Shown here in pieces: positions 19,010 to 22,108 of a stretch of DNA of 36,227 nucleotides. A program made the position numbers and the translations under genes. How positions within the stretch are numbered: position 1 is the stretch's first letter; each line of letters begins with the position of its first letter. Source of the stretch: Candidatus Heimdallarchaeota archaeon (GTDB taxonomy: Archaea; Asgardarchaeota; Heimdallarchaeia; Heimdallarchaeales; Heimdallarchaeaceae); assembly GCA_023132955.1 (NCBI GenBank), contig JAGLXK010000601.1, positions 1 through 36,227 of the forward strand, written 5' to 3'. The notes beneath the pieces are model-generated. The model ran no database searches, was not told the DNA's origin, and saw only the letters and a program-made list of their open reading frames with translations.

Positions 19010-20965
19010 TTATTTTACAAGATATTGACTTATATGTTTTTTTGCATACTTTCTTTCGTCTTCATTTACTTTAAACAAACCATAAACTATGTTGTCTACT
19101 TCCTCATCCACTGAGGAAATCAATTTTTCTTTCTTTAGTAAGAAGTTCACTTTCAGAATAAGTAACTCATTCTGTTGATTATCAGGAATAATAAAAGGTA
19201 GATCGTGAAGATACATTGGTAGATAATGTAGATATTTTCCAGTTATCTCAGTACTTGAATACATTATAGAATACAAAAAGCTGAACAACTCGGAATTTAA
19301 AAGAGAAAGAATGAGTTCAAGACTAATGTTTAAGTCTAAAGCTTTTTGAGTCAAATGTCCCAGCAAGAAAATATCTTTACAAATATAACCCTCAGTATCT
19401 AGTGTTGCTCTCATCCTTAAAGCATGTTGACATATGATTATCTTCTTTGATGTAAATATATCAATTTCAGGAAAGTTATTTTTCATTCCTTTTGCTTTCT
19501 CATGATCATAATCTAAATAGTAACCTTTCCAGTTAATGCCATATCGTTCAACTTCTCTATTTCCACCAAATGGTTTACCCCCTAGAAATTTCCTAGATTT
19601 AGTACTAACTGGTTTTTCAAATACAAAATGTTCCCGTAATCCTCTCCGATGGAATGAAATTGACCATCTAAATCTAACTAAATCTCCGAGCCTATATTCA
19701 GAATCACTGTAAATCTTCTCTATTATTGAAAGGGAAGTTGAATCTGGCAGAAAAATGGTTTTGTTTGAGGTTTTATAGAAAAAATCCGCAGAAACATATT
19801 TACACTTTGATTTGAAGTTCATTGTTTGTAACTCTTCATAATCAACATTATTAGCGAGTTTGATTGTCTCCTCATTCGTTCTATTCCTATCTAAAATGAG
19901 TATGACAGGATAAACAGCTGGACGAAAGATATTTTGATGTGTTAAATCAACAATTTCTGAAATAAGATTATGTTCAAGTAAATATCCTCTCATTTCTTTT
20001 GAATATCTTGAACTAAGAAATTTGCTGGGGATGATGTATCCAAGTTTTCCATTGGCTTTTAACAGATCAGTACCAAGTTCTAAAAAGCAAGAATAAATAT
20101 CAAAATGACCTCTAGCAGCTTTAGGGTAATTAAGTAAACAAATCTTCTTAGTCAGTTTATCCATCCGTTTTGCTTCAATATAAGGCGGGTTACCAACTAC
20201 AAAATCATACTGTTGATTCTTTGCTTTTTTAACTTCAAAAATATCTTTCTCTCCTTGTTTGTCCAGTGAGTTTGTTAGATAAATGTTAGGAGTGAAGGAT
20301 GTTTCTAAAGTATATCTCTCTTTAAATCGTTCAATTAATATCAGCGATAGATTAAATTTGGTGATATATACTGCTAGCGGGTCAATATCAAATCCAATAA
20401 CGTAGTTTTGAATATAATTAATTATTTCATTTATAGTAAATTTCTCTATATTTTGTTCGATCAGTAAGTCTATTGCTTGCGCTAGAAATAATCCTGAACC
20501 TGATGATAAATCAATAATATTTTGTTTATCTTTTATTGAGTATCTATTAGGAAAACCTACATGATGAAGAATGTATTTTATTATAGAAATTGGAGTAAAA
20601 ACTATTCCTTTTCCTTGCATAGCTATTTTTGTTAAGGTCTTCTGATATAGATTCCCTAAAGGATCCAAACCAACTTCATTACCAAACTTATTTCTTATTT
20701 CAATTATCTTAGGATAGATCTGAGAAAATTGGTCATATATTTCATTATCATATAATGTAGGAAAGGCTCTCGAAATCTTTGAGAGTTTCTTCTTAAAAGA
20801 TAAACTAGGTTCGATCAGGTTGTATTTTTCAGCACAGGATGTCAGGTATAATCCCCCAAAAACCTTGAAGCTACATAACAGCTCATCTTCATCGAAGAGC
20901 TTGTTCTCTAGAATCAAGTTGTTTATTTGAAAAAGTACTTCTTCCAGATGATTAAGAGAACCCAT
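19010..20965 (-). CDS. Solitary N6-adenine-type DNA methyltransferase (Eco57I/TaqI-like)
   Basis: A 651-residue class I methyltransferase with the amino-gamma order of motifs: motif X GKGIVFTP (about 118-125), motif I IIDLSSGSGLFLAQA (150-164), an acidic GFDIDP (191-196) and motif IV NPPY (259-262). The C-terminal half (HRRGLREHFVF.., FLGGKPFGGNREVERYGINWKGYYLD) resembles TaqI/Eco57I target-recognition regions. The N-terminal 110 residues are helical with no PD-ExK nuclease motif, so it modifies without cutting. No restriction gene or BREX component is adjacent. An orphan epigenetic role or remnant of a defence system are both possible. Confidence 0.88.
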   Translation of the reverse strand: MGSLNHLEEVLFQINNLILENKLFDEDELLCSFKVFGGLYLTSCAEKYNLIEPSLSFKKKLSKISRAFPTLYDNEIYDQFSQIYPKIIEIRNKFGNEVGLDPLGNLYQKTLTKIAMQGKGIVFTPISIIKYILHHVGFPNRYSIKDKQNIIDLSSGSGLFLAQAIDLLIEQNIEKFTINEIINYIQNYVIGFDIDPLAVYITKFNLSLILIERFKERYTLETSFTPNIYLTNSLDKQGEKDIFEVKKAKNQQYDFVVGNPPYIEAKRMDKLTKKICLLNYPKAARGHFDIYSCFLELGTDLLKANGKLGYIIPSKFLSSRYSKEMRGYLLEHNLISEIVDLTHQNIFRPAVYPVILILDRNRTNEETIKLANNVDYEELQTMNFKSKCKYVSADFFYKTSNKTIFLPDSTSLSIIEKIYSDSEYRLGDLVRFRWSISFHRRGLREHFVFEKPVSTKSRKFLGGKPFGGNREVERYGINWKGYYLDYDHEKAKGMKNNFPEIDIFTSKKIIICQHALRMRATLDTEGYICKDIFLLGHLTQKALDLNISLELILSLLNSELFSFLYSIMYSSTEITGKYLHYLPMYLHDLPFIIPDNQQNELLILKVNFLLKKEKLISSVDEEVDNIVYGLFKVNEDERKYAKKHISQYLVK

Positions 20966-21044: not shown

Positions 21045-21536
21045 TTAAATATATCGCATTTTAACCCGTTGAAACTTTGCTGTACATGTGTTACATAAAG
21101 TAGATGGTTTTTGTATAAGAACTTCAAAACTATCAGTTTTTTTCATTAAACAATCTCCATCACATGGTTTCAAACCTAAAACTATCCCAACGTGAAATGC
21201 TACTTCTTTTGCTGTAAGTGTTCTTGTTGCCATTCTAGCTGTTGATACAATTGTTCCTTTGATGGTCTCACCATATCCGAAAACATACTTATTATCAACA
21301 ATTAATGCTTGTTCGATCAACCAAAGAAAAAAGGATAATCCTTCTGATTGAGCGTTGTTTAGAAGCAATTGAGCATCAAAAGCGTTTCTTTCGGTATTCC
21401 AGGCTGTTTGTCGAGGGATTCTAACACCTACAGATCTGAACTGCATTTGATAGGTGTCACTAAGGAACCTCTCAACATGTTCTGAGACTTCATCAGCGAT
21501 TTTTTCACTATAATAAATTTTGAAATCCCTAGGCAA
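21045..21536 (-). CDS. Archaemetzincin-like protein lacking the catalytic zinc site
   Basis: A 163-residue protein that follows archaemetzincin (M54 peptidase) along its length: IPRQTAWNTERNAFDAQLLL, then VFGYGETIKGTIVSTARM, then the motif region. Where the family has HExxHxxGxxHC, this reads FHVGIVLGLKPC: all three zinc-ligand His and the catalytic Glu are gone (F, H, I and P instead), while both Gly and the Cys remain. The second, structural Cys set is retained: CDGDCLM and CNTC, close to the family's CX4CXM and CXXC. The fold is thus likely kept but not proteolysis. Start is TTG at 21536; no in-frame ATG precedes it nearby. No homologous active copy is in the window. Confidence 0.8.
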   Translation of the reverse strand: MPRDFKIYYSEKIADEVSEHVERFLSDTYQMQFRSVGVRIPRQTAWNTERNAFDAQLLLNNAQSEGLSFFLWLIEQALIVDNKYVFGYGETIKGTIVSTARMATRTLTAKEVAFHVGIVLGLKPCDGDCLMKKTDSFEVLIQKPSTLCNTCTAKFQRVKMRYI

Positions 21537-21623: not shown

Positions 21624-22079
21624 TTATTTTTTACCTGAAAGAGTATATATCCCCTGAGATACAATTTCTTCCCTTAAACCCATTTTGACTTTAATTACGA
21701 GCTGTTTTGCATTCTTTTTGTAAGTAAATTCCTTAATAATTTTCATATTGGGAGGTAGATTATATCCCGATTCGAAATCACTAGTTAGAATAGTCTGTTT
21801 TTTGTTAGATTTTATAATTAAATTGGATGTTTCAATGTAACCTTCAGAATTAAAGCTGATAAGTTTCATCTGTTCCCTAGTTTTATCAAAAAAGAGAAAA
21901 TTCCTTTCAAGTAACTTCTCAGGTTTAACAGAGGATTTTATATGCTTTATTTCTATAATATCTATTCCAAATTTTCTACATTGTAGGTATGATTCAGAAT
22001 CTATACCGTCAGCAGAGAGAGTTCCTCTCCATAAACCATAAATCCAATCAAGATCATCGATAGGGTTTGAAAAATCCAT
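21624..22079 (-). CDS. Small beta-rich protein, possibly nitrobindin/lipocalin-like
   Basis: About 151 residues from ATG 22079, chosen over TTG 22091 because a TATA box (22101-22108) sits about 26 bp upstream. The early LDWIYGLWRGTLSADG resembles the strand-turn GxW opening of nitrobindin/FABP-like beta barrels, and the rest alternates short strands (FLFFDKTREQMKLISF, GYIETSNLIIK, KQTILTSDF) ending GIYTLSGKK. No heme-binding His can be assigned. The family call is weak. It is divergent from RNase III over a 33-bp gap with overlapping promoters. Confidence 0.6.
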   Translation of the reverse strand: MDFSNPIDDLDWIYGLWRGTLSADGIDSESYLQCRKFGIDIIEIKHIKSSVKPEKLLERNFLFFDKTREQMKLISFNSEGYIETSNLIIKSNKKQTILTSDFESGYNLPPNMKIIKEFTYKKNAKQLVIKVKMGLREEIVSQGIYTLSGKK

Positions 22080-22080
22080 A

Positions 22081-22108
22081 CTTAAAAACAAAGGAATGAA
22101 TTTAAAAA
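22081..22108. promoter_or_regulatory. Interlocked divergent TATA boxes between 22079 gene and RNase III
   Basis: CTTAAAAAC at 22081-22089 lies about 28 bp before the plus-strand ATG at 22113. TTTAAAAA at 22101-22108, read on the minus strand as TTTTTAAA, lies about 26 bp before the minus-strand ATG at 22079. The two promoters overlap within 33 bp so that each box sits inside the other's transcription-start side, implying mutually exclusive firing and leaderless mRNAs for both genes. Confidence 0.5.

What the first reader, a model, noticed from the sequence alone, without database searches (positions are those of the whole stretch)
21045..21536. Archaemetzincin relative that has lost its whole catalytic zinc site
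The protein keeps the archaemetzincin layout, including both motif glycines and the structural CxxxCxM..CxxC set, but the HExxHxxGxxH residues read F-H-I-P at the His, Glu, His and His positions. Loss of all four while the fold-stabilising cysteines persist suggests a protein kept for binding rather than proteolysis, for example a regulator, scaffold or inhibitor of an active archaemetzincin elsewhere in the genome. I know of no described zinc-site-less archaemetzincin, though I cannot search.
Basis: partly seen in the sequence, partly recalled or inferred. Interest (0 to 1): 0.7.

Follow-up and report, generated by a model that had tools for sequence, protein, structure and literature searches.

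The report
Archaemetzincin lacking its catalytic zinc site
In one family of Heimdall-type archaea, a second copy of an archaeal zinc-protease gene has lost every residue that holds the catalytic zinc yet is kept intact by selection, so it probably works by binding partners rather than by cutting proteins.

Summary
The 163-aa ORF at 21045-21536 (-) is an archaemetzincin (M54) homologue in which H-E-H-H of HExxHxxGxxH read F-H-I-P, while the Cys4 set, Met-turn and both glycines remain. It is no sequencing or pseudogene artefact. Orthologues occur in 19 of 23 genomes held of this family. All 19 are 163 aa, start with TTG, lack all four catalytic residues and keep the structural ones. dN/dS is 0.08-0.25 in 27 pairs with dS<1. 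They form one clade (100/100) on a long stem, next to a paralogue with an intact site; 13 genomes hold both. Non-proteolytic archaemetzincins are known (CarG of Myxococcus: Glu to Gln, zinc ligands kept), and complete zinc-site loss is known in other metzincins (ADAMs). Best reading: a binding pseudoenzyme stapled by the Cys4 zinc. A weakly supported partner is the adjacent, co-occurring nitrobindin-like barrel, itself without a conserved His. No usable structure model was obtained.

The parts
21045..21536 (-). ORF of the zinc-site-less archaemetzincin homologue ('A'), 163 aa plus stop, TTG start
   Evidence: TTG and length of 163 aa identical in 19 of 19 orthologues
21165..21197 (-). Erased HExxHxxGxxH segment (residues 114-124, FHVGIVLGLKP)
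   Evidence: none of H/E/H/H kept in 19 of 19; both Gly invariant; only 3 of 163 columns are more variable than the third-His column
21084..21164 (-). Retained structural part: Cys125, Cys129, Met131 (Met-turn), Cys148, Cys151
   Evidence: invariant in 19 of 19; the corresponding cysteines form the Cys4 zinc site of AfAmzA (PMC3427221)
21537..21623 (-). Upstream intergenic region with an AT-rich stretch alike among many of the orthologues, about 30 nt before the TTG
   Evidence: compared by eye only; promoter role inferred
21624..22091 (-). Neighbour upstream, 155 aa as an ORF (likely start ATG at 22079): nitrobindin / THAP4_heme-bd-like barrel family without a conserved His; candidate partner
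   Evidence: PF08768 in 13 of 18 members, best E 4.4e-8 (the window's own member does not match it)
19010..20965 (-). Downstream neighbour: Eco57I-like N6 DNA methyltransferase with TaqI_C domain; follows A on the same strand in 19 of 19 loci (in 4 with another gene between); membership in a unit not shown

Best explanation
It is a pseudopeptidase: an archaemetzincin paralogue that arose by duplication in an ancestor of this Heimdall-group family, lost its catalytic zinc site and other residues conserved in the active paralogue, and was then fixed as a small binding protein. Shown here: the loss, its spread over two genera, purifying selection, retention of the Cys4 set, Met-turn and glycines, loss of further residues that intact homologues keep, new lineage-specific invariants, and persistence where the intact paralogue is absent. 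Inferred: the fold is still the archaemetzincin fold, held by one zinc on the four cysteines, with the first-His position filled by an aromatic residue (F/Y); the new invariants (such as FR.VG...P at 33-41, E90/K93 by the former edge strand, the C-terminal RY) form a surface for another protein. The most likely partner, weakly supported (about 0.3), is the product of the adjacent nitrobindin-like gene. In manner it would resemble CarG of Myxococcus, an archaemetzincin relative that acts through a partner.
For: 19 of 19 orthologues lack all four catalytic residues, keep Cys4/CxM/both Gly, and align without a gap. dN/dS 0.08-0.25 in the 27 pairs with dS<1; 0.10-0.23 in 12 such pairs of the intact paralogue (pairs are not independent). 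One clade, 100/100, next to paralogue B at 99/88, stem 1.54 changes per site. Profile match to solved archaemetzincins, E=1e-12, and to intact homologues, probability 99.8. Residues kept in 17-18 of 18 intact homologues of alignment A2 but in at most 2 of its 12 A rows also include positions 50, 52, 77, 81, 83 and 84. Candidate partner adjacent and co-occurring in 19 of 19, both without a match in the single-contig genome G022.
Against: No experiment and no usable model. Pairs with dS of 1-1.5 give dN/dS up to 0.44, all the highest involving G021 and near saturation. Co-occurrence with the neighbour is largely linkage: gene order is conserved for several other genes too, and in three of the four genomes without A the region is not assembled. 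Invariants could serve folding rather than a partner. Residual metal binding at the old site is not formally excluded, though no metal-binding residue is constant there.
Confidence: 0.82

Rival explanations
1. A regulator, decoy or inhibitor of the active archaemetzincin B of the same cell, for example by heterodimerising with it or by holding its substrate.
For: 13 of 19 A genomes also carry B with an intact site; the B clade is next to A in the tree.
Against: In G004, G007, G010 and G015 the genes on both sides of the B locus are there but B is missing (94-106 bp between the flanking matches), and A remains, with dN/dS 0.09-0.19 in the 10 pairs among these four and G018. A and B lie in different neighbourhoods. 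It is not excluded for the 13 genomes with both.
Confidence: 0.1
2. A still acts as an enzyme, of another kind, using a rebuilt active site in the old cleft.
For: Residue 115 is H or Q in 15 of 19, and E90 and K93 near the former edge strand are invariant.
Against: Residue 115 is F in 4 of 19; no His, Asp, Glu or Cys is invariant at the former ligand positions. Nothing suggests a known catalytic set.
Confidence: 0.06
3. A decaying duplicate or annotation artefact.
For: Weak TTG start codon; loss of the active site.
Against: 19 intact ORFs of identical length down to 44% identity with the window's, TTG kept in 19 of 19, dN/dS well below 1.
Confidence: 0.02

Closest known systems
Archaemetzincin AmzA (peptidase family M54; AfAmzA 3zvs/4axq, MkAmzA 2x7m)
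   Same: Profile match over nearly the whole protein; Cys4 set, Met-turn and the two glycines
   Different: All three zinc-ligand His and the catalytic Glu are gone, as are other residues that intact homologues keep; invariant C-terminal RY
CarG of Myxococcus xanthus (taken by me to be the protein behind NCBIfam NF033824, Myxo_non_zincin, from the model's name)
   Same: Archaemetzincin relative without protease activity that works through a protein partner; 16 of 19 A members match NF033824 at E<=1, best 9.6e-7
   Different: CarG reads HQx2Hx2Ex2HC and coordinates two zinc atoms (PMC8156234, passage); A keeps no ligand of the catalytic site. The CarD domain family PF02559 has no match in 19 of 19 A genomes. 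The window protein scores 18.4 bits against a cut-off of 250.
AMZ1 of vertebrates
   Same: Archaemetzincin with an impaired catalytic zinc site: third His replaced by Asn, Ser or Thr (PMC3427221 introduction)
   Different: Only one ligand is lost there, and aminopeptidase activity has been claimed for it (same passage)
Pseudopeptidase ADAMs (M12 metzincins, e.g. ADAM2, ADAM18, ADAM32)
   Same: A metzincin domain with the zinc motif erased and the Met-turn kept (PMC11266112, table and passages)
   Different: Another metzincin family, animal membrane proteins of several domains; A is a stand-alone archaeal protein with a Cys4 set

Membership tests
Archaemetzincin, peptidase family M54 | HExxHxxGxxH catalytic zinc motif | tested here: not met
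   0 of 19 keep any of the four residues
Archaemetzincin, peptidase family M54 | C...C.M ... CxxC structural set | tested here: met
   19 of 19
Archaemetzincin, peptidase family M54 | Family profile above curated cut-off | tested here: inconclusive
   PF07998 28.7 bits vs 24.4, met, C-terminal part only; NF033823 60.3 vs 145, not met. Homologue of the family, not a member of the peptidase subfamily.
Archaemetzincin, peptidase family M54 | Metzincin fold with Cys4 zinc site | tested here: inconclusive
   Profile match to 4axq at 1e-12; structure model failed, pLDDT 37.7
Archaemetzincin, peptidase family M54 | Zinc-dependent proteolysis | not testable with these tools
   needs purified protein
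CarG / Myxo_non_zincin (NF033824) | Score above cut-off 250 bits | tested here: not met
   18.4 bits
CarG / Myxo_non_zincin (NF033824) | Glu to Gln with His zinc ligands kept | tested here: not met
   all ligands lost; CarG motif from PMC8156234
CarG / Myxo_non_zincin (NF033824) | Paired with CarD (CarD_TRCF domain) | tested here: not met
   PF02559 in 0 of 19 A genomes, 10 of 14 control genomes positive; the 19 are incomplete assemblies

The most novel reading that the evidence does not exclude
A two-protein module confined to this archaeal family in which both parts are cofactor proteins stripped of their cofactor site: a metzincin without its catalytic zinc and, one gene upstream, a nitrobindin-type barrel without a conserved heme-ligating His. 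The two would bind each other, or a shared ligand, as a regulatory pair analogous to CarD-CarG but with an unrelated partner.
Probability: 0.2. Interest if true: 0.65.

Novelty: new variant of a known kind. Interest (0 to 1): 0.48.

Why it matters
Archaemetzincins have no settled cellular role; MkAmzA and AfAmzA showed no proteolysis in the assays reported (PMC3427221), while AMZ-tk degraded casein (PMC4681839, passages). A conserved version without any catalytic site, kept where the intact copy is gone, would argue that the scaffold has a binding job of its own. It also gives a natural control for separating the Cys4 zinc from the catalytic zinc. It adds an archaeal case to the pseudopeptidases; the review of which I saw passages (PMC11266112) has no occurrence of 'M54' or of words beginning 'archae' in its main text.

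Tried and rejected
Regulator of the intact paralogue as the general role: set aside as above. CarG-type partnership with CarD: no CarD_TRCF match in 19 of 19 genomes. Viral relatives: two scans of viral contigs found none. Structure: one AlphaFold job on the window protein plus five close orthologues from the search for related loci gave pLDDT 37.7; no fold search was made on it. Solved structure for the nitrobindin-like neighbour: no PDB match at E<=10. Absence of A in G002, G009 and G013 is uninformative: in G002 and G009 the likely orthologue of the methyltransferase that follows A starts at or within about 140 bases of a contig end, G013 has no close match to it, and RNase III of the locus was found in none of the three. 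G018 lacks the B-locus anchor and was not counted in the 4 of 4.

My own errors: the first motif pattern was one base short, so one search is void and was repeated correctly. One search was a script with wrong file names. In one search I chose the start of the B genes by looking for a Met, so their ATG starts are no finding and are not used.

Full report
What is there. The ORF at 21045-21536 on the minus strand encodes 163 aa. It passes Pfam's M54 cut-off (28.7 vs 24.4 bits) with residues 109-157 only, and matches NCBIfam's archaemetzincin model over residues 6-154 but well below the curated cut-off (60.3 vs 145). A profile of its orthologues finds the solved archaemetzincins 4axq (E=1e-12), 3zvs, 2x7m and 3lmc. 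Where M54 has H-E-H-H, this protein has F-H-I-P at residues 114, 115, 118 and 124. Gly117, Gly121, Cys125, Cys129, Met131, Cys148 and Cys151 are in place. In AfAmzA the four cysteines bind a second, structural zinc beside the Met-turn (PMC3427221; introduction and first part of the results read).

Not an error, not decay. Whole-genome searches found orthologues in 19 of the 23 genomes held of the same family: 18 of 21 of the same genus, including the window's own, and one of a sister genus. Five loci with record titles are named Candidatus Heimdallarchaeota archaeon; 'Asgard' for the wider group is recalled. All 19 are 163 aa long counted from a TTG, align without gaps and lack all four catalytic residues. 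In G010 the reading frame opens at that TTG, directly after a stop codon. In the neighbouring barrel gene an ATG-coded Met is invariant in 18 of 18. In the 19 A proteins the first-His position is F or Y (13, 6), the Glu position H, Q or F (11, 4, 4), the second His I, K, L, T, R or F, and the third His any of nine residues; only 3 of 163 columns are more variable than that last one. The glycines, cysteines and Met never vary. Nei-Gojobori dN/dS for the 27 pairs with dS<1 is 0.08-0.25. For the intact paralogue it is 0.10-0.23 in 12 such pairs (12 of the 15 genes compared, pairs of unequal length skipped). A pairs with dS of 1-1.5 reach 0.44, the highest with G021 and near saturation. Pairs share ancestry and are not independent.

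Origin. A second M54 gene, here called B, with HExxHxxGxxHC intact, is present in 15 of the 23 family genomes, 13 of which also hold A. A tree was made of 89 rows: 19 A, 15 B, 5 from other families of the class, and 50 others of the phylum, one of them of the same class and two being the same gene. A is one clade (100/100), B is one clade (98/92), and together they are one side of a branch (99/88). A's stem is 1.54 changes per site; the root is at the midpoint, for drawing only. So A most likely came from a duplication before the two genera split, followed by rapid change and then constraint.

How unusual it is in the phylum. The NCBIfam model matched 141 of 227 genomes of the phylum, and 101 of 227 have an exact DNA match to the full motif (at least one of these, in G187 contig 84, lies outside the listed M54 hits). 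Of 50 rows read outside the family (the 30 loci returned for best-scoring matches and 20 that I picked, mostly weaker or second copies; 49 distinct genes, not all matches), 49 keep HExxH; one reads HELGQ, and two others have lost the third His (to A and to R). The five further class members keep the motif. One copy in G045, cut by a contig end, has Gln for the catalytic Glu. No row that I read outside A had lost all four. An A-profile scan of the 227 genomes found scores above 250 bits only in the 19 known genomes; the next best, 115 bits, is a B copy.

What else was lost and gained. Against the 18 intact homologues in alignment A2 (which holds 12 of the 19 A rows and 18 of the 20 intact rows), positions 10, 50, 52, 77, 81, 83, 84, 139 and 140 carry a residue kept in 17 or 18 of 18 that at most 2 of the 12 A rows retain. 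Fifteen residues are invariant in all 19 A and present in at most 3 of the 18: K6, E11, D15, F33, R34, V36, G37, P41, E90, K93, L107, F137, L140, R161, Y162. By my reading of the alignment, positions 81-84 come just before, and E90 next to, Ala85 of AfAmzA, which the paper places in the edge strand bordering the cleft. That the new invariants make a partner surface is inference.

Does it serve the active enzyme? B usually sits before a small protein of 84-92 aa, a NifS-type cysteine desulfurase (14 of 15 loci) and an IscU-type scaffold (12 of 15; some stretches end too early to tell); these names are my reading of the sequences, from no call. With that desulfurase as anchor, the B locus was found in G004, G007, G010 and G015, all of which hold A and no B. 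In each, homologues of the genes on both sides are there, the matches to them are 94-106 bp apart, and no M54 motif lies in the fetched stretch; the same expressions find the motifs in two control loci. In G000 and G018 only remote matches to the anchor were found, so nothing can be said. A therefore persists without B, which speaks against regulation of B as its general function. It does not exclude such a role in the 13 genomes with both.

Neighbourhood. The order RNase III (divergent), 155-aa gene, A, Eco57I-like methyltransferase is found in all 19 loci as far as contigs reach. In 4 of 19 a gene on the other strand lies between A and the methyltransferase, so those two are no fixed operon. 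The 155-aa gene is next to A in 18 of 18 loci read (73-98 bp apart after its stop codon), and as a fragment at the contig end in G008. It was found in the same 19 of 56 genomes as A's orthologues. The single-contig genome G022 shows no match to A, B or the 155-aa gene but has homologues (about 42% identity) of the methyltransferase and RNase III at separate places. The 155-aa family matches THAP4_heme-bd / nitrobindin in 13 of 18 members at E<=1, best 4.4e-8, not including the window's own member; the next family by number of members, TnpB_IS66, reaches only 0.0062. Of eight members scanned singly, four pass the Pfam cut-off. Nitrobindins hold heme by a proximal His (PMC10094804, passages). 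Here no column has His in more than 5 of 18, so a heme site is unlikely.

Known relatives. CarG of Myxococcus is a non-proteolytic archaemetzincin relative that forms a tight complex with CarD and binds two zincs through HQx2Hx2Ex2HC and the cysteines (PMC8156234 and PMC4374960, passages; PMC3427221 introduction). A goes further, losing every ligand of the catalytic site, and no CarD-type domain was found (0 of 19). Vertebrate AMZ1 lacks the third His. Among other metzincins several ADAMs have erased motifs (PMC11266112, table and passages). Searches of the held library for archaemetzincin alone (24 papers listed), with pseudopeptidase (0), with Asgard (0), for pseudoprotease with metzincin (9) and for inactive HExxH terms (4) showed no report of an archaemetzincin without any zinc ligand in the listings. 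That library lacks most subscription papers.

Verdict. A real, conserved and selected pseudo-archaemetzincin; confidence 0.82 for a non-catalytic binding role, about 0.3 that its partner is the adjacent barrel. New variant of a known kind.

Noticed in passing
window 21624-22091 (-): Nitrobindin / THAP4-like barrel family without a conserved His, directly upstream of A in every locus read; probably a heme-free nitrobindin.
   Followed up: partly
window 21534-21536 (-) and orthologues: TTG start codon invariant in 19 of 19 orthologues down to 44% identity, with a similar AT-rich stretch upstream in many; suggests a kept weak start.
   Followed up: partly
L037-L051: The intact archaemetzincin of these archaea lies shortly before a NifS/IscU-type Fe-S assembly gene pair in most loci (names by my reading), a possible hint at the unknown role of archaemetzincins.
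   Followed up: no
L108, L107, L113, L026: Other M54 copies of the phylum with partial losses: HELGQ; third His to Ala; third His to Arg; catalytic Glu to Gln.
   Followed up: no
L110-L112, L115-L120: Long (open frames of 250-285 aa) M54 paralogues of another family of the phylum, with one residue inserted in the motif (HExxHxxxGxxH in most), forming one clade on a long stem.
   Followed up: no
L063-L066 (G017, G014, G003, G006): A gene of about 400 aa on the opposite strand lies between A and the methyltransferase in 4 of 19 loci.
   Followed up: no
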